Shown here one piece after another: positions 1,596 through 63,058 of a stretch of 64,000 bases of DNA. This DNA comes from an uncultured Dehalococcoidia bacterium. GTDB lineage: Bacteria > Chloroflexota > Dehalococcoidia > Lucifugimonadales > UBA3495. The notes under the pieces were generated by a model that searched no databases, was not told the origin of the DNA, and worked only from the letters and a program-made list of their open reading frames with translations. How positions within the stretch are numbered: the stretch's first letter is position 1; each line of letters opens with the position of its first letter. The stretch is taken from assembly GCA_958296225.1 (NCBI GenBank), contig OY282456.1, forward strand, positions 3,876,523 to 3,940,522, written 5' to 3'. The translations under genes were made by a program, and so were the position numbers.

Positions 1596-3035
1596 ATGCC
1601 CGCATCCGGCAACGTGCTTATCGTAGTATTCGACGGCCTGCAGCCGTCGCAAATCACCCCGGAGTTGATGCCCAACCTGGCCCAATTCGCCCGCGCCGGC
1701 GTTACCCTGGCCAATCACCACCCGGTGTTTCCCACCGTTACCCGCGTGAACGTATCCAGCATCGTAACCGGATGCCAGCCCGGCAAGCACGGGCTGGCCG
1801 GCAACACGTTCCTCGGCCGGGATTACGACCCCCACCGCGTCATCGCCGCTATGGAACCAACCCTGCAAGCGGTCGTCGCTGCCACGGGCAAAGCGCTCCT
1901 GGCCCCCACGTTGGCGGACATCCTGGGCAGCCACGGAATGGAATACATCGCCATTGGCACCGGCACCAGCGGCAACGCCTACCTGCACAACCCCAACGCC
2001 GCCACCGCCGGCGGCGCTACCATCCACCCCGACTTTACCCTGCCGCGCGGGCTGGACGCCGAGCTGTCAGCGCGCTTCGGCAACTGGCCGGAACCGGACT
2101 TGCCCAACACGGCCCGCCTGGTTCATGCCCGCCGCATCCTCACCGAATACATCCTGCCCGAACGCAACCCCGTGGTGGCCCTGCTCTGGTCATCGGAGCC
2201 GGACAAGACCCAGCACGAGGACGGGGTCGGATTGGGCCGGGCGCCCCAGGCCCTGGCGGAAGCCGACGCGGAATTTGGCGAACTGCTCGCCTATTTAGAG
2301 CAGTCCGGGCGCGCCGGCGCTACCGACGTGTTCGTGGCGTCCGACCACGGCTATTCCACCATCGGGCAAGTGATTCGGGTTGAGCCGATGCTGCGCGCCG
2401 CCGGCTTTCCCACCATTGACCAGCCGGGCGGCGTTGCGGTCGCAGCCAACGGCGGCTCGGCGCTGTTCTACGTCCATGATTGCGAAGCCGGCGCAGCGGA
2501 ACGGCTCGTCTCCTGGCTAACGGCGCAACCGTGGTGCGGCCCGTTATTCGCATCTGAAAGAATCGGTGAACCGGCCGGCACGCTCCCGGCGTCCCTTATC
2601 GGTTGCGACGGCCCCCGGTCGCCCGACCTGGCTATGTCATTTTCATGGCACAGCGCCCCCAATTCAGCCGGCTACGCCGGCCACGCCTTTGCCACCGGCG
2701 GGGCGCCCGGCCAGGGGCAGCACGGCAGCATGAGCCGCCACGAACTGCGCAACGTGGGCATAGCCGCCGGCCCATCAATACGCAACGGAACGGTGATTGA
2801 AACGCCCACCGGCAACATTGACCTGGCCCCAACCATCCTCCACCTGCTGGAAATTGGCGGGGCCGATGGCACGATGGATGGCCGAACGCTGCAAGAAGTT
2901 CTGGCTAACGGATACTGCCACGCCCCGGAACCGTCAATCACAACCCACCAGGCCGCCGTGGGAGATTACCGGCAAGAGGTGCAGGTGAGTCAGGTAGGCA
3001 ACGCTCGCTACGCTGACTGGGGAAACCGGGTCTGA
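1596..3035 (+). CDS. Alkaline phosphatase family protein (type I phosphodiesterase/nucleotide pyrophosphatase-like)
   Basis: A 479-residue metal-dependent phosphoester hydrolase of the alkaline phosphatase superfamily. Near the N-terminus VVFDGLQP supplies the first metal-binding Asp. It is followed by a MPNLAQFARAGV segment and a FPTVTRVNVSSIVTG segment whose Thr is the expected nucleophile. Further metal ligands are expected in the SEPDKTQHED, ASDHGYSTIG and HGSMSRHELRN segments. No signal peptide is visible, so it is predicted cytoplasmic. Its place next to a nucleoside hydrolase suggests nucleotide or phosphodiester salvage; this is inference only. A strong rho-independent terminator follows at 3058. 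Confidence 0.85.
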   Translation: MPASGNVLIVVFDGLQPSQITPELMPNLAQFARAGVTLANHHPVFPTVTRVNVSSIVTGCQPGKHGLAGNTFLGRDYDPHRVIAAMEPTLQAVVAATGKALLAPTLADILGSHGMEYIAIGTGTSGNAYLHNPNAATAGGATIHPDFTLPRGLDAELSARFGNWPEPDLPNTARLVHARRILTEYILPERNPVVALLWSSEPDKTQHEDGVGLGRAPQALAEADAEFGELLAYLEQSGRAGATDVFVASDHGYSTIGQVIRVEPMLRAAGFPTIDQPGGVAVAANGGSALFYVHDCEAGAAERLVSWLTAQPWCGPLFASERIGEPAGTLPASLIGCDGPRSPDLAMSFSWHSAPNSAGYAGHAFATGGAPGQGQHGSMSRHELRNVGIAAGPSIRNGTVIETPTGNIDLAPTILHLLEIGGADGTMDGRTLQEVLANGYCHAPEPSITTHQAAVGDYRQEVQVSQVGNARYADWGNRV

Positions 3036-5230: not shown

Positions 5231-6358
5231 CTAGACGAAGGCCAACTTCTCGAAGTTCCCGCCCACGATGGGGTTGGCGTCCAGGCTCATCCAGTCTTCC
5301 AGGATAGTGGAGTACACGCTCCGGAAATCGGTGTTGGGAACCAGGTCGCCCTGTTCCAGGTCTTCCGGCTTGGAGGACGGGTACTCGCCGTATTCACCGC
5401 CCTTGATGGAATCGCCCATCAGGAACACCAGGCCGGCGGCGCCGTGGTCGGTGCCGCTGCCGTTGTCGTGGACGCGGCGGCCAAATTCAGAGAACATCAT
5501 CAGGATGATGTTGTCGCTGGCGTCGTTTTCCCGCAGGTCATCGAAGAAGCTCGACACCGCCGCTGACACATCCCGCCACAGGCCGTCGTGCATTCCAACC
5601 TGGTTGGAGTGGCTGTCAAAGCTCCCGTGGTCGCAGTACAGCACCCGGGTGCCCAAGTTGGCCTGATGCACCTGGGAAATGCCCTTCAGCTTGCGGGCGA
5701 TGGGGGTGTCGGGATATTCAACGCTGCTGCTGTACCGGTCCGGCGCCACCTTCAGGATGTCGGCGGCCTTGAGGCCGTCCAGTCCGGTCTGGCCCAGGTA
5801 ATCCATCACGAACCCGCTGCCGATGGTGGGCGAGTACAGGCGCGTGAAGCGGTCGATAATCTTGCCCCGCTGCATCTCTTCCTGAATGCTGGTGAGCATC
5901 CCGAAGTTGTCCAGGTCATCGACGCAGGCGACGGGGACGCCGGGCAGGGCCAGCGCGCGCGGCAGGCTCGGCCCGAAGCTGACGGCGGTGACTACGTTGT
6001 CCTTATTGGGGTCGATGTCGCGGGTGGCCCGGCCCAGCCAGCCCTCGGTGCCCAGCTTGTCCGGCTCGCAGGTGTGCCAGATGTCCATACTGCGGAAGTG
6101 GCTGCGCGGGCTGTTGGCGTAACCGACGCCGTGGATAATGGCCATATCGCCGGCGTCCCAGAACCGCCGCAGGGGCCCGACTTCGGGATGGAACCCGATG
6201 CGGTCGTTCAGTTTGATGATGCGTTCGTCGGGCACGCCCACCACGGGCCGCTTCTCCCGGTACAGGGGTTCGGCGTGGGGGATGACCGTGTTCATATAGT
6301 CGTTGCCGCCGGTCAGCTGCAACACCACCAGAACGGGGTCTTTCCTGGTTGCAGTCAT
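5231..6358 (-). CDS. DUF1501 domain-containing protein
   Basis: A 375-residue member of the DUF1501 family (alkaline-phosphatase/sulfatase-like fold). Family marks are the N-terminal VVLQLTGGNDYMNTVIP, the segment IHGVGYANSPRSHFRSMDIWHT, and the C-terminal MMFSEFGRRVHDNGSGTDHG stretch. Many relatives carry a twin-arginine signal; this one starts directly with the domain, so export is not evident. It lies 84 bp downstream of the DUF1800 gene on the same strand. DUF1800-DUF1501 pairs are a common conserved gene couple of unknown biochemical role, and this is a standard example. Confidence 0.9.
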   Translation of the reverse strand: MTATRKDPVLVVLQLTGGNDYMNTVIPHAEPLYREKRPVVGVPDERIIKLNDRIGFHPEVGPLRRFWDAGDMAIIHGVGYANSPRSHFRSMDIWHTCEPDKLGTEGWLGRATRDIDPNKDNVVTAVSFGPSLPRALALPGVPVACVDDLDNFGMLTSIQEEMQRGKIIDRFTRLYSPTIGSGFVMDYLGQTGLDGLKAADILKVAPDRYSSSVEYPDTPIARKLKGISQVHQANLGTRVLYCDHGSFDSHSNQVGMHDGLWRDVSAAVSSFFDDLRENDASDNIILMMFSEFGRRVHDNGSGTDHGAAGLVFLMGDSIKGGEYGEYPSSKPEDLEQGDLVPNTDFRSVYSTILEDWMSLDANPIVGGNFEKLAFV

Positions 6359-6442
6359 TTTATTGCTCCTGTCAATCCGTGTTTCACTGCGAGGCCGTGG
6401 CTGTGGCGATGCCAGTGGGACGGCATCGCCGCAACAACCGCG

Positions 6443-49186: not shown

Positions 49187-49598
49187 CCGCCCAACTCCCG
49201 CCGCCCTTCCGCCCCCGCCGGTTTTTACCGGGATAGATTTGCCGGGATAGAATAGACTGGATAAACAGGATTTGCCGGTTCCGCAATCCTGAAATCCGGT
49301 TTATACTGCGCGCGCAGGGACAGACCCGGCGGCAAGCGGCCCTGACCGCCGGCAACATGAAGGAACCGGGCCCACCGCAAAAGCCGTTCGCGCCGGCGCC
49401 GCTGGCGGTGAACCGCCGGGCCGCCGCAACTTAACAACCGAATAACCCGGCGCTTCCCGGCCGCCGGCCACGTCCGCCGGCCGGAAGGACTCAAACAGCT
49501 GTGGACACCGCCGGGGTGTATCTGGTAAGATGCGGCTACCGGCGCAGCATCATTCCTTTGGCAAATATAGTGGCAGGGTCACTATCAAAACGCCAAGG
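49187..49598 (+). promoter_or_regulatory. Non-coding region, presumed CRISPR leader
   Basis: 412 bp without a supportable gene between the third binding-protein gene and the first CRISPR repeat. The left part holds two copies of ATTTGCCGG around GATAGAATAGACTGGATAAA. TATACT at 49302 is a possible -10. The last 80 bp (CATCATTCCTTTGGCAAATATAGTGGC...) are richer in A/T than the surroundings, as expected of a leader. It lies on the 5' side of the array as judged from repeat orientation. Which part acts as leader is inferred. Confidence 0.5.
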
Positions 49599-52500
49599 GG
49601 TTCCCCCGCACACGCGGGGATAGTCCCGATTCCGCCGCGCCGGGCACAATATGCGCTTGGGTTCCCCCGCACACGCGGGGATAGTCCGTTCGTCACAGCC
49701 TTCTCCTGAGCCCCCGTTGCGGTTCCCCCGCACACGCGGGGATAGTCCCCGGAGGTTGCCGCCGGCAGTGCCAGCCCGAACGGTTCCCCCGCACACGCGG
49801 GGATAGTCCGCGTCATACGGTTTTCTGCTCACCGGCGATGTCGGTTCCCCCGCACACGCGGGGATAGTCCTAGCCAGCCCTCCCTAATCGGGCAAACGTT
49901 TGAGGTTCCCCCGCACACGCGGGGATAGTCCGGCTATCTCCACTGAGCCCGTATTCCCGCCGCCGGTTCCCCCGCACACGCGGGGATAGTCCGACTTCAA
50001 GACGGCGCCGTTCCTCTTCGCTAACGGTTCCCCCGCACACGCGGGGATAGTCCTGGTACGCGCGCAGTCCGTCGTATTCCCGATTCGGTTCCCCCGCACA
50101 CGCGGGGATAGTCCGCCACGCAGTGCCAGGCCAGCGTTCCGGGCTGAGGTTCCCCCGCACACGCGGGGATAGTCCGCGCCAACTCCCGTTGCCCATCGTC
50201 CACGTCCGGGTTCCCCCGCACACGCGGGGATAGTCCCCAGCATATTTATCAACTCATGGCACGGGGGCAGGTTCCCCCGCACACGCGGGGATAGTCCTTA
50301 AGCCGGCCGGCCGGCTGACCGGGAGGGCTGGGTTCCCCCGCACACGCGGGGATAGTCCTTGTCAGAGTGGAGGTCGTCCCGGTCTGCCGGAGGTTCCCCC
50401 GCACACGCGGGGATAGTCCCTGGGATGACATCGCGGCCAGTCTGCAGACCGCGGTTCCCCCGCACACGCGGGGATAGTCCATACTCTGTGCTTTCCACCA
50501 CCAGGGATACGGTGGTTCCCCCGCACACGCGGGGATAGTCCGCTGAACCCGGTCGCAATCATGGGCACCAGAAAGGTTCCCCCGCACACGCGGGGATAGT
50601 CCGTATGGCTGCTCCACGCCGCACCAAATTGCAGGGGTTCCCCCGCACACGCGGGGATAGTCCGCCATTCAAATAGCCGTCGGGATGTTGGGGTAGGGTT
50701 CCCCCGCACACGCGGGGATAGTCCGGCCAGGCAATTCGTCGTTGCGACACATGATGCGGTTCCCCCGCACACGCGGGGATAGTCCGCCTACGCTGGGGTC
50801 GGCGGGGCCCTTGCCGGCGGTTCCCCCGCACACGCGGGGATAGTCCCCAGATAGACGCCTCGACCTGGTACGACGACGAGGTTCCCCCGCACACGCGGGG
50901 ATAGTCCGGAGCATCCAAATGTCAACCACTCTCACCGTGAGGTTCCCCCGCACACGCGGGGATAGTCCTGGGCTTATGATGGGCCCGACACGTCGCCCCT
51001 GGGTTCCCCCGCACACGCGGGGATAGTCCCCGGGCAACGTCAGAGAGGACGACGAATCAGGCGGTTCCCCCGCACACGCGGGGATAGTCCGGGTTCCAAA
51101 ATCGGTTACAGGTATCGCCAGTAGGTTCCCCCGCACACGCGGGGATAGTCCGCCATTTTTGACACTCGCCGGATGCGCGCGGCAGGTTCCCCCGCACACG
51201 CGGGGATAGTCCGTGAGGGTTCCGCCAATTCCCAGGGGCGAGGTTGGTTCCCCCGCACACGCGGGGATAGTCCCCGATTGGCCAGGCCGCCGCGGCGGAT
51301 GCGCTGGGTTCCCCCGCACACGCGGGGATAGTCCGTAATGCCTTTGCCAACATCAGGTCCTCGTGCCGGTTCCCCCGCACACGCGGGGATAGTCCATGGA
51401 CAGCCATAGGCGCAGCCTATGACGCTATGGTTCCCCCGCACACGCGGGGATAGTCCTCCGGCGCCATCTCCATGCGTCAGCCGGGGACGGGTTCCCCCGC
51501 ACACGCGGGGATAGTCCCGGGTCCAACTTCCGAAGGTCGGCCCAGCATTCGGTTCCCCCGCACACGCGGGGATAGTCCGATGGCGGCCGCCGGGGTGGGG
51601 ACAATCGCGCCGGTTCCCCCGCACACGCGGGGATAGTCCTGTAATGCTCGTCGTGGCAACAGGCGTGGATAGGGTTCCCCCGCACACGCGGGGATAGTCC
51701 TGTCAGCGTCAGGCGCGATGCTGGCGATTGCAAGGTTCCCCCGCACACGCGGGGATAGTCCTATCCGCTCCGGCGGTTCTGGAGGCAGCATTGCGGTTCC
51801 CCCGCACACGCGGGGATAGTCCCATCGTTAGGCAAGCAACCGGATTCCAGGATGGGGTTCCCCCGCACACGCGGGGATAGTCCTCACTTTGCCGATAGAT
51901 TATCAGCTCTACCGAGGGTTCCCCCGCACACGCGGGGATAGTCCGCAAATTGGAACGCTACGAACCTACAGCAGGCGGGTTCCCCCGCACACGCGGGGAT
52001 AGTCCCAGCAGCAAGGGCATCAGCGCCGCCGCGGCCGTGGTTCCCCCGCACACGCGGGGATAGTCCGTGGGCGGCCCGCCGTTGCGTCCGGGCCCGGTCG
52101 GTTCCCCCGCACACGCGGGGATAGTCCCAAAACGGGCGATTTTTTTGCCGCTCTATTGTGGGTTCCCCCGCACACGCGGGGATAGTCCCTGCTACGCGGA
52201 AGTAACGACCCGGCGAATTCAGGTTCCCCCGCACACGCGGGGATAGTCCTCTCGACAGACCATTGATTCATCACGTTGTGAGGGTTCCCCCGCACACGCG
52301 GGGATAGTCCTGCGACATCTACCCCGAAATGCCGGATGATGAGGGTTCCCCCGCACACGCGGGGATAGTCCCTGCGAACACTGCAACGAGTTTTTCCCCT
52401 TCACGGTTCCCCCGCACACGCGGGGATAGTCCGGTTGATTGACTAACCCACCACCCCAAGCAAGGGGTTCCCCCGCACACGCGGGGATAGTCCGAGCCGG

Positions 52501-55500
52501 CAACTCCTCCCGCTGCTCAGGCCGCAGGTTCCCCCGCACACGCGGGGATAGTCCGAAATCCTGCAATTCCCGACTGGCGGCGGTAGCGGTTCCCCCGCAC
52601 ACGCGGGGATAGTCCTTCCCCGATTTGCTGGCAGATTTGCTTGCCTGCGGTTCCCCCGCACACGCGGGGATAGTCCTCGTTACCTCGGTATCCAGCGCGA
52701 TGTCCAGCGGGTTCCCCCGCACACGCGGGGATAGTCCCTGCTCCCGGCAGACCGCCATCGCCTCCGCATAGGGTTCCCCCGCACACGCGGGGATAGTCCC
52801 CGGATGATGGACGAGTGGGACGACACCGCCGAGGTTCCCCCGCACACGCGGGGATAGTCCCCAAGAATACCGGGAATGCCAGATTAGCGTACCGGTTCCC
52901 CCGCACACGCGGGGATAGTCCCGCCCCGGACGGTATCCGACGGCAACGCCGCCGGGTTCCCCCGCACACGCGGGGATAGTCCCCCGATACCAACACGAAC
53001 CCGGAGGACACGATGGGTTCCCCCGCACACGCGGGGATAGTCCGTTCGTAGGCCGCGCAATCTTTCGCGGGTTCGTGGTTCCCCCGCACACGCGGGGATA
53101 GTCCCAAAACTACCCGCCGCCGCAAGACCGAACCCGGGGTTCCCCCGCACACGCGGGGATAGTCCGTTGGTAGGGGTGATTCCTTGCCCGCGAAAACTGG
53201 TTCCCCCGCACACGCGGGGATAGTCCGCCGGTGATGGCATCCCAGTCGTTCGGACGCCAGGTTCCCCCGCACACGCGGGGATAGTCCCCGCAGTTAGCGC
53301 ATAGCAGGCCGGCGGCGTGCGGTTCCCCCGCACACGCGGGGATAGTCCGTCAGCGGTAGCGCAACCCGATGCGCCCGCCTTGGTTCCCCCGCACACGCGG
53401 GGATAGTCCTCTGGCAGCCGCTTTACCAGCGGCAACAGCCGGGGTTCCCCCGCACACGCGGGGATAGTCCCGCCGGCCAGCGCGATAGAGGGCGCGGCGG
53501 CGTGGTTCCCCCGCACACGCGGGGATAGTCCTGTCCTTTTCGTGCGTATAGCGGTTGCCGCGGTGGTTCCCCCGCACACGCGGGGATAGTCCCACGCTGA
53601 TGGCGCCCACCCGCGCAATGCCGTCGGTTCCCCCGCACACGCGGGGATAGTCCCTATGACCGAACGCGAAAAGCCGGTTGACGCCGGGTTCCCCCGCACA
53701 CGCGGGGATAGTCCCCCAATGCAGGCCGGCCGTACACCACTTGCTTGGGTTCCCCCGCACACGCGGGGATAGTCCCGTCGTTTCTGTCCGTCGCCAGCCC
53801 AAACAATCGGTTCCCCCGCACACGCGGGGATAGTCCGACCCGACGCCGGCATCGTACCCGGCAAAAGAAGGTTCCCCCGCACACGCGGGGATAGTCCCCT
53901 GGGCCTGCCAGCGCGCTTCGCTGATGAGGTGGTTCCCCCGCACACGCGGGGATAGTCCCGCGCCGCCGGTATGCAGCAGGCGGCAAGGCGGGGTTCCCCC
54001 GCACACGCGGGGATAGTCCCCGATGCCGAGTCGAGTGGTTATAGTTGGACAAGGTTCCCCCGCACACGCGGGGATAGTCCTATACTGGTCTGGCGTCGGG
54101 TCCTCGCCCAGTAGGTTCCCCCGCACACGCGGGGATAGTCCACGGCTCCCAGACCCCGCGTAGAAACTGCGTCGGGTTCCCCCGCACACGCGGGGATAGT
54201 CCCGGCCGACCGCAGGCGGGAGTGCCGCGCCCCGAGGTTCCCCCGCACACGCGGGGATAGTCCCGGGAGGCGTTCAGGGGTTGCCTATCATTCGCTGGTT
54301 CCCCCGCACACGCGGGGATAGTCCTCTAGCGTAATACAAAAGCGTGACGCTAGATTGGGTTCCCCCGCACACGCGGGGATAGTCCTCACATCATCATTTT
54401 TCCGAGTTTCCAGTGTGTGGTTCCCCCGCACACGCGGGGATAGTCCTGCCCCCGGCGTAGCGCTACGCCGGGGGCAAAAGGTTCCCCCGCACACGCGGGG
54501 ATAGTCCTACGGGGGCTGCGAAGCGGGCTTTCGACACGCAGGTTCCCCCGCACACGCGGGGATAGTCCCACGATCTGGACTCCCTGTTCGACATCCGCCC
54601 TGGTTCCCCCGCACACGCGGGGATAGTCCCAACGACCTGGGGCGCTATACCAGGGAGCAGCTGGTTCCCCCGCACACGCGGGGATAGTCCGGCTGCAATC
54701 GTAGTCCAGAGCGGGCTATCCCCGGTTCCCCCGCACACGCGGGGATAGTCCCAGCTCAGCATGAATACGCGCCCCTGCCGCGCCGGTTCCCCCGCACACG
54801 CGGGGATAGTCCCCCCTCCAGCAGAGACGCGGACAGGTCGATATAGGTTCCCCCGCACACGCGGGGATAGTCCTACGCTAGGGCAATGCAGAAGTCAACA
54901 GATAATGGTTCCCCCGCACACGCGGGGATAGTCCGCACCGTAAGGGTCCTGAGCGGCATCCAGCTGGGGTTCCCCCGCACACGCGGGGATAGTCCCTAGG
55001 ATTATACCAGTGTACGCAAGGCGCAAGGGGTTCCCCCGCACACGCGGGGATAGTCCGGGTTTGTCGCCGCCGGCCGTGCCGCTAGCTCCGGTTCCCCCGC
55101 ACACGCGGGGATAGTCCGTTACGAAGTAAATTGGCAACGCCGTCCCGGTCGGTTCCCCCGCACACGCGGGGATAGTCCGATGATGCAGCAGCGGATTGTC
55201 CGTCCACGGGGGGTTCCCCCGCACACGCGGGGATAGTCCCGGGGATGATTGACCCGCAGGCCGGGCTGGACTGGTTCCCCCGCACACGCGGGGATAGTCC
55301 CCGCCGCTCCCCGCCCCGGATATAGGCCCGCCCGGTTCCCCCGCACACGCGGGGATAGTCCTTACAGTTCCGCGCGTTTTGCCGCAGTGTTAGAGGTTCC
55401 CCCGCACACGCGGGGATAGTCCTACGGCTAACACCGGAATCGAATTATCCCGGCCGGTTCCCCCGCACACGCGGGGATAGTCCCCGTAGGCAGCAGCGCG

Positions 55501-58500
55501 TTAGAGCGGACGCACTGGTTCCCCCGCACACGCGGGGATAGTCCCCGCATCGTCGGATTCTACGATGACATTTATCAGGTTCCCCCGCACACGCGGGGAT
55601 AGTCCTTGCAGCTCCGGCATCCTGACAGCGGCAGGGGTGGTTCCCCCGCACACGCGGGGATAGTCCCGCGGCCCAGCGGCCCAGGTGTTCGGCAACGCGG
55701 GTTCCCCCGCACACGCGGGGATAGTCCCCATGCCACAGCACGCACAAACCAAGTGTTCAGGGTTCCCCCGCACACGCGGGGATAGTCCTTCTACGCGGGC
55801 CTGCCAGTCGCAGCGCCATACGGTTCCCCCGCACACGCGGGGATAGTCCTCAAGGAGGCGATGCAATGCCCATATCCATTACGGTTCCCCCGCACACGCG
55901 GGGATAGTCCGCTCCAAGAAGCTCCGGTAGTTGAACATCTGGTGGTTCCCCCGCACACGCGGGGATAGTCCGTACTCCGCGAGGCGGTGGCAGTTCGAGT
56001 GGTTGGTTCCCCCGCACACGCGGGGATAGTCCTGGCTGGGATGACCTGCAGTATCTACTGGGCGAGGTTCCCCCGCACACGCGGGGATAGTCCTCATCCA
56101 GACCATCGCGGTTCTCATTGCCTGGCGGTTCCCCCGCACACGCGGGGATAGTCCGTGGCGTTCAGTGTGATTTACCAAATCATCTACGGTTCCCCCGCAC
56201 ACGCGGGGATAGTCCTGTCACCCCCTACGACCCTACCGACATCGATGAGGTTCCCCCGCACACGCGGGGATAGTCCTTCGGCCGGCGGCTCGGCTACTCG
56301 CATCAGCTTGGTTCCCCCGCACACGCGGGGATAGTCCTACAGAACGTTTAGGCCGGAACGCCCGTCTATCGGTTCCCCCGCACACGCGGGGATAGTCCGA
56401 CATCGCTGGGGCTGTCAACCGACCGCCCCCTGGTTCCCCCGCACACGCGGGGATAGTCCTTTGAGCCAGCGTTTCCGGCGGCAGTGCTAGCAGGTTCCCC
56501 CGCACACGCGGGGATAGTCCTTTCGCAGTCGCTGGTAGGGGCGGGAACGGCGGGGTTCCCCCGCACACGCGGGGATAGTCCGTGCGTCTGCGATTGGACG
56601 GACGGATGCCTGATGGTTCCCCCGCACACGCGGGGATAGTCCCCGTCCAGCACGAAGCCCTCGTTAGCAGCGCTAGGTTCCCCCGCACACGCGGGGATAG
56701 TCCTTGACCGATACCCAGTTTTCGGCTTACGCCAGCGGTTCCCCCGCACACGCGGGGATAGTCCGGACGAAACTTGCGGCTGGTGTCGCCGCGATGCGGT
56801 TCCCCCGCACACGCGGGGATAGTCCCGTCGCTGGGCATGGTCATCTCCTCCACTAGGCGGTTCCCCCGCACACGCGGGGATAGTCCGCACGAATAAGCGG
56901 TATTTAGTGTACATTGATCGGTTCCCCCGCACACGCGGGGATAGTCCGACACCGAGGCAGCGGCGTGAGCCGCTGCCTCGGGTTCCCCCGCACACGCGGG
57001 GATAGTCCCGACAGGTTGTCGGCGACGAACATAGAGCGGCTGGTTCCCCCGCACACGCGGGGATAGTCCGCCGGCCGATGACAGCAGCCCCGTAGCGGGT
57101 CAGGTTCCCCCGCACACGCGGGGATAGTCCTCTGACCAGCCGATAATAGCTGTCGCCGCCGGAGGTTCCCCCGCACACGCGGGGATAGTCCCTGCGTTCA
57201 GAATGACCAGGGGCCCGCCGTGGCGGGTTCCCCCGCACACGCGGGGATAGTCCCGCCACCGCGCTCTCAAAACCTTCATCCGAGTAGGTTCCCCCGCACA
57301 CGCGGGGATAGTCCTTACCATTCCGCGTCCTTCCGTGATCGCTCGGCGGTTCCCCCGCACACGCGGGGATAGTCCTCGACGGGCGAATCTCCGACCGGCA
57401 AGTCGGGCGGTTCCCCCGCACACGCGGGGATAGTCCTTTGCGGGTAGGGAGCAGGCTCATCTGGTCCTCGGTTCCCCCGCACACGCGGGGATAGTCCCGT
57501 TCTCTCTGCCCGAAGCCTGGCCGTGCTGGCGGTTCCCCCGCACACGCGGGGATAGTCCCCATCGTATCCTCCGTTGGGGTGTAGGCTCGTCGGTTCCCCC
57601 GCACACGCGGGGATAGTCCCTGGCAGCTTTGCCTACCCTGCTGGCGGCGGTGGGTTCCCCCGCACACGCGGGGATAGTCCCCAGCCGTGACCTTGCAGCA
57701 TCTGCACCACCTCGGTTCCCCCGCACACGCGGGGATAGTCCCCGACGCAGCAGGGCGGCCATGCCCGCGGCCGTGGTTCCCCCGCACACGCGGGGATAGT
57801 CCCAACCTGCGCGCGGTGGGCGACCTGAACGCCGAGGTTCCCCCGCACACGCGGGGATAGTCCCTCGTGATGACGCACTACATCCCCCGGCGGAGCGGTT
57901 CCCCCGCACACGCGGGGATAGTCCGTTGCCGAGCCGCTCCTCAGTTGTCGCCAGCAGGGTTCCCCCGCACACGCGGGGATAGTCCTACCCCTATTATGCT
58001 GGCGGGGGCGTCGCAAGGGGTTCCCCCGCACACGCGGGGATAGTCCCCTTGCCAGCCGACGAACCGGAGTAGGCAGCGCGGTTCCCCCGCACACGCGGGT
58101 ATAGTCCTCACTGTTCTACCTCCATGTAGCAGGTGCGGCAGGTTCCCCCGCACACGCGGGTATAGTCCTACGCTAGATATTCACCCAGAGCCTGCGGTCA
58201 TGGTTCCCCCGCACACGCGGGGATAGTCCTTTCGTGGCGGCCGGTCACTGCTCCGCTGGCGGGGTTCCCCCGCACACGCGGGGATAGTCCCGACCTATCG
58301 CCGGAGTACAGGGATGACTACGAGGTTCCCCCGCACACGCGGGGATAGTCCCAAAATCTGGTCACCGCACCGGGGGTTGAATCCGGTTCCCCCGCACACG
58401 CGGGGATAGTCCGGTTTTTATCGGCGCCAATCCCCCGCTGGAGACGGTTCCCCCGCACACGCGGGGATAGTCCGTACAGGTACTACCAGTTTCCCGACAT

Positions 58501-61500
58501 AAGGGAGGTTCCCCCGCACACGCGGGGATAGTCCGGTCAAGCGCGCCGGCTCCGCTATCCAGCATCCGGTTCCCCCGCACACGCGGGGATAGTCCGGGCC
58601 GGCCAAAGGTAAAGAATCCGCCGGTCTGGGTTCCCCCGCACACGCGGGGATAGTCCTGTTTTTGTTCCTGCCGTAGTTCAGCTCTCCCAGGTTCCCCCGC
58701 ACACGCGGGGATAGTCCCTGCAGGTCGTGCTTTTTGTCGATGTCCAGCCAGGTTCCCCCGCACACGCGGGGATAGTCCCGGACGCCGGCGCCGGTTTTGG
58801 CTTGGCCGTGTGGTTCCCCCGCACACGCGGGGATAGTCCCCAGCGGTTGAAATAGGGCAGCTGCGTTTGAATGGTTCCCCCGCACACGCGGGGATAGTCC
58901 CCACGGCATCACCCAGCAGCGCGTTAGCGCCATGGTTCCCCCGCACACGCGGGGATAGTCCCTTCGGCCAGCCCTTCGGCCATCCTTTCTACGGGGTTCC
59001 CCCGCACACGCGGGGATAGTCCTCTCGCCGCCCACCCACTGGTCGGCGAGCCAGAGGTTCCCCCGCACACGCGGGGATAGTCCTGTATTGCGATTTTCGT
59101 TGCCCCCCCGACCGATGGTTCCCCCGCACACGCGGGGATAGTCCCTCCGCGACGCCAGACGCGCGATTCCCCGCCTCGGTTCCCCCGCACACGCGGGGAT
59201 AGTCCTCGCCAGCCGGGTATGCCCTGCTCCGGTATCACGGTTCCCCCGCACACGCGGGGATAGTCCTATGACCGCTGGAACCACGACGACGCAGACCTCG
59301 GTTCCCCCGCACACGCGGGGATAGTCCCGTCAGCCTGGCGATTTCCCGCCTTTCTGTATCGGTTCCCCCGCACACGCGGGGATAGTCCCCAGGTTTAGGG
59401 CGGTCGTGTCTTTCGCTGCCAGGTTCCCCCGCACACGCGGGGATAGTCCGAACACCTATCACGTTGGCGATGCGCTGGGATGGGTTCCCCCGCACACGCG
59501 GGGATAGTCCAATGACCGCTTTGGCCAGGCCCAAACGGTTGTCGGTTCCCCCGCACACGCGGGGATAGTCCGGATGCATCATGATTGAAACGCCATCCAC
59601 CGTAGGTTCCCCCGCACACGCGGGGATAGTCCGGATACTGGCGGATGTACAGGCTGAACGTGGCTGGTTCCCCCGCACACGCGGGGATAGTCCTGCCGGC
59701 GTCCTGACTTACGGGCGGGCCGGCCAGGTTCCCCCGCACACGCGGGGATAGTCCGATTGGTAAAATCGTCGCTGCAAAACCCTTTACGGTTCCCCCGCAC
59801 ACGCGGGGATAGTCCAGGCGGTGGTTGACATCGCCTTTATCGTAGTGTGGTTCCCCCGCACACGCGGGGATAGTCCGTAATAAACAGTATCGTGGCCCAG
59901 CACGGGAGCGGTTCCCCCGCACACGCGGGGATAGTCCGTAGGGTTGCTCCACGCCGCACCAAATTGCAGGGGTTCCCCCGCACACGCGGGGATAGTCCAT
60001 GCTCGTCCGGGCATTGGGCATAGTGCCAGTCGGTTCCCCCGCACACGCGGGGATAGTCCTGTCCATTGACAACACGCCTTGCGGCTATCCCGGGTTCCCC
60101 CGCACACGCGGGGATAGTCCTAGTATCATCGTGGTTTTACATCGTCAAAGCGAGGTTCCCCCGCACACGCGGGGATAGTCCTAGTATCATCGTGGTTTTA
60201 CATCGTCAAAGCGAGGTTCCCCCGCACACGCGGGGATAGTCCCGGACACGGCCGGGCGCACAACGTTGCTGATCCGGTTCCCCCGCACACGCGGGGATAG
60301 TCCCCAGCGAGATATTGCCGCCGGACGTGACGATAGGGTTCCCCCGCACACGCGGGGATAGTCCCGTTGCTGATCCAATGCCGACCGCCACGGGTAGGGT
60401 TCCCCCGCACACGCGGGGATAGTCCGGTGCAGCGATATGAGGACAGCGCATGGCCTCCGGTTCCCCCGCACACGCGGGGATAGTCCCCGGCCCTGGTGCT
60501 TGCCGCCGCGGCGGCCCAGGGTTCCCCCGCACACGCGGGGATAGTCCTTTGCGTGCGTTGGGCTGGTATCGGTCTGGAGTGGTTCCCCCGCACACGCGGG
60601 GATAGTCCCGCCGGCGCCGGATTTGGACGACACCCCCCCGGGGTTCCCCCGCACACGCGGGGATAGTCCCCGGCCCAGGTGTGCGGCGGCCCTGGTGTGC
60701 TAGGTTCCCCCGCACACGCGGGGATAGTCCCCCTCCGTCGGGCCGGTGCTACCGTCGGGCCGGGGTTCCCCCGCACACGCGGGGATAGTCCGCACCAGCG
60801 CGGCCCGCAACCCTCCGTCGGGCCGGTTCCCCCGCACACGCGGGGATAGTCCTCCAGTCCTGCCACGCTCACGGCGGCGCAAACCGGTTCCCCCGCACAC
60901 GCGGGGATAGTCCTTACATTGAAGACAGCGAACGCCAGAACGAAAAGGTTCCCCCGCACACGCGGGGATAGTCCGTTTCCCGTAGGGGACTCCCGCCAAG
61001 ACTGTTCGGTTCCCCCGCACACGCGGGGATAGTCCTTTCTGCCGGTACAATCGGGTTTGCCAGCAGCGGGTTCCCCCGCACACGCGGGGATAGTCCGTGG
61101 TCGAGGCGGCGGGGCGGGGACGGCTTTAGGGTTCCCCCGCACACGCGGGGATAGTCCTGTCCCTCGTGAGGCCGCAAGCTCCCGCGCAGGGGTTCCCCCG
61201 CACACGCGGGGATAGTCCCGGTTCCCCGGTCCGCGTCGTGACCGGCTGGGAGGTTCCCCCGCACACGCGGGGATAGTCCCCACATAGTCCAGTGGCGCTG
61301 TCCGCTGCAGCAGGTTCCCCCGCACACGCGGGGATAGTCCCCGCCGCCGCCAGTACCAGGTACTCGCCATAGGGGTTCCCCCGCACACGCGGGGATAGTC
61401 CCTGTTTGACCTTACGCCAACCTCTTGCCACCAAGGTTCCCCCGCACACGCGGGGATAGTCCCCCGCTGTATGCCCCCGCTGATTGAGTCAGCGGGGTTC

Positions 61501-63058
61501 CCCCGCACACGCGGGGATAGTCCGCAGGTGCAGGCTTACCTGTGGGCCCGCACGGTGGTTCCCCCGCACACGCGGGGATAGTCCCGGGTGCCGTCGGCCG
61601 TGACGCCAAATTCCTGCGGTTCCCCCGCACACGCGGGGATAGTCCTGCCGGCGTCCTGACTTACGGGCGGGCCGGCCAGGTTCCCCCGCACACGCGGGGA
61701 TAGTCCCAGACAGCGGACGACATAGCCGGCGGTGTACCGGGTTCCCCCGCACACGCGGGGATAGTCCTGCCCCCGACCGCTGGAAGGTGGCGCTACGGGC
61801 GGTTCCCCCGCACACGCGGGGATAGTCCGTGCGGACGCTGGCACAAGAAAAGGCCGCCGAGGGTTCCCCCGCACACGCGGGGATAGTCCCGGTAATGACG
61901 GTTTGGGCCGCGCCCGCGCCGTGGTTCCCCCGCACACGCGGGGATAGTCCCAGGTCGGCGCAGACGCGGGCATGATCATGAAGGGTTCCCCCGCACACGC
62001 GGGGATAGTCCGTGGACGTGGGATTGAAGGCGCTGGCGGTATGCGGGTTCCCCCGCACACGCGGGGATAGTCCGCAACGATAGAGCGGCCGCCGGTGGAC
62101 ATCCCAGGTTCCCCCGCACACGCGGGGATAGTCCGTTCCGGTCCTTCGCCTGGCCGGCGATACTTTGGGTTCCCCCGCACACGCGGGGATAGTCCCCGCG
62201 AGCTCGCCATCTGGCGGCACCGAACGACGGTTCCCCCGCACACGCGGGGATAGTCCCACCGTTTGCGCCGCCTGTGGCACTGCGGACAGGGTTCCCCCGC
62301 ACACGCGGGGATAGTCCTGGCAACCAGTACGATGTGAGCGAGCTGGTTACGGTTCCCCCGCACACGCGGGGATAGTCCGTGGCGGCCATCCACGAGCTGC
62401 CCCCGGCAGAGGGTTCCCCCGCACACGCGGGGATAGTCCGTTGACCTATCATCGTCTTTCACCAGTTCGAGCGGTTCCCCCGCACACGCGGGGATAGTCC
62501 GTGGAGTACCTGCAGGCAAAAGCCAAAGCCATCGGTTCCCCCGCACACGCGGGGATAGTCCTCGCGGCCAGAAAGTCGGGGCTGACGTCGGGGTGGTTCC
62601 CCCGCACACGCGGGGATAGTCCCTGGAGAAAGAGCGCAACGCCAAGTACGACGTGGGTTCCCCCGCACACGCGGGGATAGTCCCGTGCAGATACGGGCAA
62701 TCGGGTTCGAAACTCAGGTTCCCCCGCACACGCGGGGATAGTCCGTTGCGTTTGCTGATACTCGTATTCCTCTTTGCGGTTCCCCCGCACACGCGGGGAT
62801 AGTCCGGCTTGCAGGTTCTCTATGCCGCAGTCAAGCCCGGTTCCCCCGCACACGCGGGGATAGTCCGGCTTGCCGCTAGGTTAGTGGCAGCTGCACCGTT
62901 TGCCGACGGGTTCCCCCGCACACGCGGGGATAGTCCTTTGCGCTGCAGGTCTTTCGCGGCAGCTACTCGGGTTCCCCCGCACACGCGGGGATAGTCCTGT
63001 CGGCATCCCTCGCCAGCTGGCGGTCATAGCGGTTCCCCCGCACACGCGGGGATGGTAG
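49599..63058 (+). CRISPR. Type I-E-like CRISPR array: 221 repeats, 220 spacers
   Basis: The repeat is 28 bp, beginning GGTTCCCCCG and ending CGGGGATAGTCC, with a CCCCGC...GCGGGG-type internal palindrome. It resembles E. coli-type I-E repeats, whose crRNA handle is AUAAACCG; here it would be AUAGUCC. I followed all repeat starts from 49599 to 63031. The spacing is 61 bp except for three 62-bp steps (spacers starting 52738, 57192 and 62012 are 34 nt) and one 70-bp step (spacer 62867-62908 is 42 nt). This accounts exactly for the length. Repeats are uniform except at 58080 and 58141 (G21 to T) and the last at 63031. Orientation puts the leader on the left. No cas gene is in the window. Confidence 0.97.
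63031..63058 (+). repeat. Terminal CRISPR repeat with altered 3' end
   Basis: The first 23 bases match the consensus exactly. The last five read GGTAG instead of AGTCC. This is either normal decay of the leader-distal repeat or truncation by the adjoining insertion sequence, whose transposase stop codon is only 10 bp further on. Confidence 0.8.

What the first reader, a model, noticed from the sequence alone, without database searches (positions are those of the whole stretch)
50603..59970. Two spacers 9.3 kb apart differ only at positions 4 and 7: possible re-immunisation against an escape variant
Spacer 17 (50603-50635) and spacer 170 (59938-59970) are identical at 31 of 33 positions. The two differences (T/G at 4, C/T at 7) are both in the handle-proximal end, which is the seed of type I-E guides. 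Independent capture of the same protospacer in two viral variants, with changes concentrated where escape mutations act, would leave exactly this trace. Spacer 170 is leader-distal and therefore older. If the first base derives from the PAM, the positions become 3 and 6, of which 6 is tolerant.
Basis: partly seen in the sequence, partly recalled or inferred. Interest (0 to 1): 0.8.

Follow-up and report, generated by a model that had tools for sequence, protein, structure and literature searches.

The report
Same phage site captured twice
A bacterium's giant CRISPR memory holds two nearly identical entries that were almost certainly captured separately from two slightly different relatives of one invader; the two differing bases look like ordinary silent variation in an invader gene rather than proof of immune escape.

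Summary
Spacers 17 (50603-50635) and 170 (59938-59970) match at 31 of 33 positions, differing at 4 and 7, in a 220-spacer type I-E array; chance cannot explain this. In-place mutation after copying is unlikely, because 218 of 221 repeats are identical. Independent capture of one site in two alleles is best supported. The escape reading is not. (1) The PAM, read from six exactly overlapping spacer pairs, is AA directly before the 33-mer, so the differences sit at guide positions 3 and 6; 6 is flipped out in E. coli Cascade, and an rG-dA mismatch at 3 is probably tolerated. (2) On the reverse strand both alleles encode PAIWCGVEQPY, so both differences are silent; three other variant pairs in this genome and a congener also have a silent frame (joint chance 0.04). 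(3) Recapture of the same site occurs at the rate expected from random re-drawing of PAM sites (6 same-site to 7 overlapping pairs; expected same-site fraction 0.42). (4) Other same-site variant pairs differ outside the seed (22; 10 and 13). No protospacer for either allele was found in any collection searched, so the decisive test remains open. This is an ordinary feature of a long, active array.

The parts
50603..50635 (+). spacer 17 (younger allele) GTATGGCTGCTCCACGCCGCACCAAATTGCAGG
59938..59970 (+). spacer 170 (older allele) GTAGGGTTGCTCCACGCCGCACCAAATTGCAGG
49599..63058 (+). CRISPR array A: 221 repeats of GGTTCCCCCGCACACGCGGGGATAGTCC, 220 spacers, terminal degenerate repeat at 63031
49390..49598 (+). 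leader (80% identical to the leader of array C in the same genome)
54081..54113 (+). spacer 74, identical to spacers B18 and C72 in the two other arrays of this genome (repeated capture of one site)
59694..59726 (+). spacer 166, identical to spacer 198
61646..61678 (+). spacer 198, identical to spacer 166
60914..60946 (+). spacer 186; one-base variant (position 22, silent) of spacer B9 in array B
60121..60214 (+). spacers 173 and 174, identical and adjacent (probably slippage duplication)

Best explanation
Spacers 17 and 170 are two independent type I-E captures of one protospacer (PAM 5'-AA immediately before the 33-mer). They come from two diverged relatives of the same long-lived virus or plasmid lineage, separated by about 152 other insertions. 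The bases differ because the invader gene on the opposite strand (reading PAIWCGVEQPY in both alleles) had drifted at two adjacent third codon positions. The same site was drawn twice because the host repeatedly samples a finite set of PAM sites. Shown: array, polarity, PAM, near-identity, and a rate of same-site recapture that fits random re-drawing. Inferred: the coding frame, the neutral nature of the changes, and the identity of the source.
For: Near-identity beyond chance. In-place mutation improbable: about 3 changes in 6,160 repeat bases gives P about 1e-4 for two in one spacer. PAM AA in 6 of 6 exact overlapping pairs (chance 5e-10) and first base A depleted, 15 of 394. Same-site to overlapping pairs 6:7, against an expected same-site fraction of 0.42, p = 0.78. 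Both differences silent on the reverse strand; the other same-register variant pairs (A186/B9; congener G015 8101/12554, whose differences are also 3 bases apart) and one offset pair also have a silent frame; joint chance 0.04. A nearly complete type I-E operon exists in this genome.
Against: No protospacer was found for either allele, so coding frame and source are unproven. Silence alone is weak for this pair (chance 0.21 to 0.25). A silent change can also be an escape change. Both differences do lie in the PAM-proximal eight bases (chance 0.05).
Confidence: 0.74

Rival explanations
1. Re-immunisation against an escape mutant: the virus changed position 4 (and 7) under selection by spacer 170, and the host recaptured the mutated protospacer as spacer 17.
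For: Both differences are PAM-proximal and the leader-proximal copy is the younger. Seed mismatches can block interference yet allow primed capture (PMC12871591).
Against: With PAM AA and the first base as third PAM base the mismatches of the old guide against the new allele are rG-dA at position 3 and rU-dG at position 6. Position 6 is flipped out and of lesser weight in E. coli (PMC5904413); target mutations to A are generally tolerated, rG-dA was tolerated at position 4 and the strongest effects are at 1, 2 and 4 (PMC12871591). Both changes are silent. Other near-identical pairs differ at 22 and at 10 and 13. One seed change would suffice for escape, so the second difference points to accumulated divergence.
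Confidence: 0.17
2. Duplication of a repeat-spacer unit inside the array, followed by two point mutations in one copy.
For: Identical adjacent pairs in this and related arrays (173/174, C75/C76) show that unit duplication happens.
Against: The copies are 153 units apart with unrelated neighbours; repeats carry almost no mutations, giving P about 1e-4; other distant duplicates are unmutated or silent.
Confidence: 0.05
3. One allele is an assembly or consensus error in a long-read genome.
For: The genome's contamination estimate is 7.75%; arrays are hard to assemble.
Against: 218 of 221 repeats are letter-perfect; two substitutions, no indels, both silent, are not a typical error pattern.
Confidence: 0.03

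Closest known systems
Type I-E CRISPR-Cas adaptation (E. coli-like: 61-nt unit, AA-N PAM, polarised insertion)
   Same: Unit length 61, PAM AA plus one base that is the first base of the 33-mer, leader-end insertion, Cas1e, Cas3, Cas5e, Cas6e, Cas7 and a weak Cse1 in the genome
   Different: The 33-mer's first base is C, G or T, rarely A, not fixed G; the cas operon is not beside this array; a type III-A module sits next to array C
Reacquisition or independent acquisition of a spacer (event classes in SpacerPlacer, PMC11472070)
   Same: The same protospacer site entered the same locus twice
   Different: That study's counts are of spacers treated as duplicates (8 reacquisitions and 7 independent insertions among 24,090 spacers); here the two copies differ at two bases
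Re-sampling of persisting viral populations (Weinberger et al. 2012, PMC3330103)
   Same: Old and new spacers target sequences of a lineage that persists and varies by SNPs
   Different: There the viral genomes were reconstructed; here none was found

Membership tests
type I-E CRISPR-Cas array | repeat-spacer unit of about 61 nt with near-invariant repeats | tested here: met
   221 repeats, 218 identical, spacers 33-34 nt (one 42)
type I-E CRISPR-Cas array | AA-type PAM on the 5' side of the protospacer | tested here: met
   6 of 6 exact overlapping pairs show AA
type I-E CRISPR-Cas array | type I-E effector and adaptation genes in the genome | tested here: met
   Cas3, Cas7e, Cas5e, Cas6e and Cas1e found; Cse1 below its cut-off (49 against 70 bits), Cse2 and Cas2 not confirmed by profile; Pfam PF09481 does not ring
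independent recapture of one protospacer | near-identity in register and not explained by copying inside the array | tested here: met
re-immunisation against an escape variant | differences at positions that abolish interference | tested here: inconclusive
   guide positions 3 and 6; 6 flipped out; rG-dA at 3 probably tolerated by E. coli data
re-immunisation against an escape variant | two viral alleles next to the same PAM, younger allele selected | tested here: inconclusive
   no protospacer in any collection searched

The most novel reading that the evidence does not exclude
The array records a real escape and re-immunisation event: the virus changed guide position 3 under pressure from spacer 170 by a change that is silent in its protein, and the host recaptured the same site. 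The silent nature of such pairs would then show that the escape routes used in nature are limited to silent seed changes.
Probability: 0.16. Interest if true: 0.45.

Novelty: new member of a known kind. Interest (0 to 1): 0.22.

Why it matters
Near-identical spacer pairs in one array are a fossil record of how an unseen virus varied. Here they point to ordinary silent drift and repeated sampling of a persisting lineage. The analysis also gives a simple control for claims of escape: compare same-site with overlapping-site captures, and ask whether the differences are silent, before invoking selection.

Tried and rejected
Protospacer searches: both exact alleles, the shared 22-mer and three degenerate peptide patterns in IMG/VR; one peptide pattern in GTDB genome contigs (one hit, L022, antisense to a gene, judged chance), in 50 family genomes and (with 3 mismatches) in 400 phylum genomes; BLAST of the first 8 kb of the array and of spacer 17 against phages, and of spacer 170 against plasmids. 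None gave a credible source. The triple spacer A74 and the A186/B9 peptide were also absent from IMG/VR. Self-targeting of the pair was excluded. Segmental duplication was rejected because neighbouring spacers are unrelated. I tried to enlarge the sample of variant pairs with arrays from other genera, but those found were too small.

Full report
OBSERVATION. The array runs from 49599 to 63058 with 221 repeats and 220 spacers; 218 repeats are identical, two adjacent ones share one change and the last is degenerate. The shared 24-25 nt core occurs nowhere else in the window or the genome with up to three mismatches. Chance is excluded.

POLARITY. The 210 nt before the first repeat are 80% identical to the sequence before array C of the same genome, and the last 18 nt are also shared with a congener. 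The degenerate repeat is at the right end. Spacer 17 is therefore the younger copy.

SYSTEM. The genome (3.97 Mb, one contig) carries two further arrays of the same repeat kind: B, 1.1 kb downstream of A and without that leader, and C, some 0.45 Mb away across the contig ends. Beside array C lies a type I-E operon (Cas3, a divergent Cse1, Cas7, Cas5, Cas6e, Cas1e) and a type III-A module. No cas gene was seen among the genes tested upstream of the window array.

PAM. Among 397 spacers, six pairs overlap exactly by 12 to 25 nt at spacer ends, as protospacers from one genome should. In all six the two bases before the second spacer are AA (chance 5e-10). A is depleted as first spacer base (15 of 394, p = 5e-17). 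I read the PAM as AA plus the first base of the 33-mer, so the differences are at guide positions 3 and 6.

HOW OFTEN ONE SITE IS HIT TWICE. Non-adjacent same-site pairs in this genome: A17/A170, A74/B18/C72 (three pairs), A166/A198, A186/B9. Overlapping pairs on the same strand: seven. If PAM sites are drawn at random, the number of AA sites inside spacers predicts a same-site fraction of 0.42; observed 6 of 13 (p = 0.78), or 4 of 11 counting the triple once (p = 1.0). No special process is needed to explain why one site was drawn twice.

WHAT THE DIFFERENCES LOOK LIKE. On the reverse strand both alleles read PAIWCGVEQPY; the two differences are adjacent third codon positions (CAG/CAA, CCA/CCC). 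In the other five frames the alleles differ or hit a stop. Two random changes are silent in some open frame in 21 to 25% of trials, so this alone is weak. The same holds for A186/B9 (YIEDSERQNE; CGC/CGT) and, in congener G015, for 8101/12554 (positions 10 and 13; TPERTRNEIGQ) and 11212/14857 (FVGKDFIEE). Joint chance is 0.04. A fifth pair (C13/C28), with four differences in 28 letters, is not wholly silent, though the differences in its first 25 letters, one of them at the inferred PAM, are. Of three same-register variant pairs only A17/A170 falls in the seed.

WOULD THE CHANGE HAVE LET THE VIRUS ESCAPE? Guide 170 against the younger allele gives rG-dA at position 3 and rU-dG at position 6 (derived from the two sequences). 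In E. coli, every sixth base is flipped out and position 6 matters much less (PMC5904413). Target changes to A or T are reported as tolerated, rG-dA was tolerated at position 4, and positions 1, 2 and 4 are most sensitive (PMC12871591, a preprint). Full escape is doubtful, with the caveat that this Cascade is divergent and untested.

ALTERNATIVES. Copying inside the array plus mutation has a probability near 1e-4 from the repeat record and predicts shared neighbours, which are absent. Assembly error is unlikely for two silent substitutions in an array with near-perfect repeats.

SOURCE. No credible protospacer was found for either allele. Absence from these collections is not evidence against a viral source: the triple spacer A74 and the A186/B9 peptide were also absent from IMG/VR.

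KNOWN CONTEXT. Reacquisition and independent insertion are named event classes and rare in one survey (8 and 7 of 24,090 spacers, PMC11472070). Viral sequences that persist and vary by SNPs while host arrays keep old spacers have been described (PMC3330103). This pair is a clear example with two alleles, not a new phenomenon.

VERDICT. Real, independent double capture; the escape reading is possible but not favoured. Interest 0.22.

Noticed in passing
window 58080 and 58141: Two adjacent repeats share one change (GGGGATAG to GGGTATAG) although repeats on both sides are consensus; a mutated repeat was apparently copied once and then the consensus returned.
   Followed up: no
window 62867-62908: One 42-nt spacer (number 218) near the old end of an array of 33-mers.
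   Followed up: no
window 59511-59543 (spacer 163); L023:4067-4099: Spacer 163 matches the organism's own chromosome perfectly, inside a von-Willebrand-A-like protein gene, but without the AA PAM. Spacer 165, two units away, matches a nicotinate-phosphoribosyltransferase-like gene in this genome (3 mismatches) and a congener (1), also without AA.
   Followed up: partly
L045:1097-7541 (G000:C1 about 397.6-404.0 kb): A type III-A csm module (Csm2, two Csm3, Csm4, a TIGR02710 CARF protein) lies between array C and the I-E operon; Cas10/Csm1 is spread over two overlapping ORFs that cover only parts of the profile, so it may be broken. If working, it could share I-E guides and reduce the value of seed mutations to a phage.
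   Followed up: partly
L009 about 5534-6427; L010 (reverse strand) about 5383-6276: The same transposase-bearing insertion of nearly 0.9 kb, with ends GGGCGTGTGGTCAAAT, sits inside both array B and array C.
   Followed up: partly
spacers A74 (window 54081-54113), B18, C72: One spacer (TATACTGGTCTGGCGTCGGGTCCTCGCCCAGTA) is present unchanged in all three arrays of the genome; absent from IMG/VR.
   Followed up: partly
L036:8467 and 10541 (congener G015): Two spacers are exact reverse complements of each other over all 33 bases.
   Followed up: no
L037 (congener G008), spacers 1772-1955 and 2016-2199 (reverse-strand coordinates): A block of four spacers is duplicated in tandem, a segmental array duplication.
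   Followed up: no
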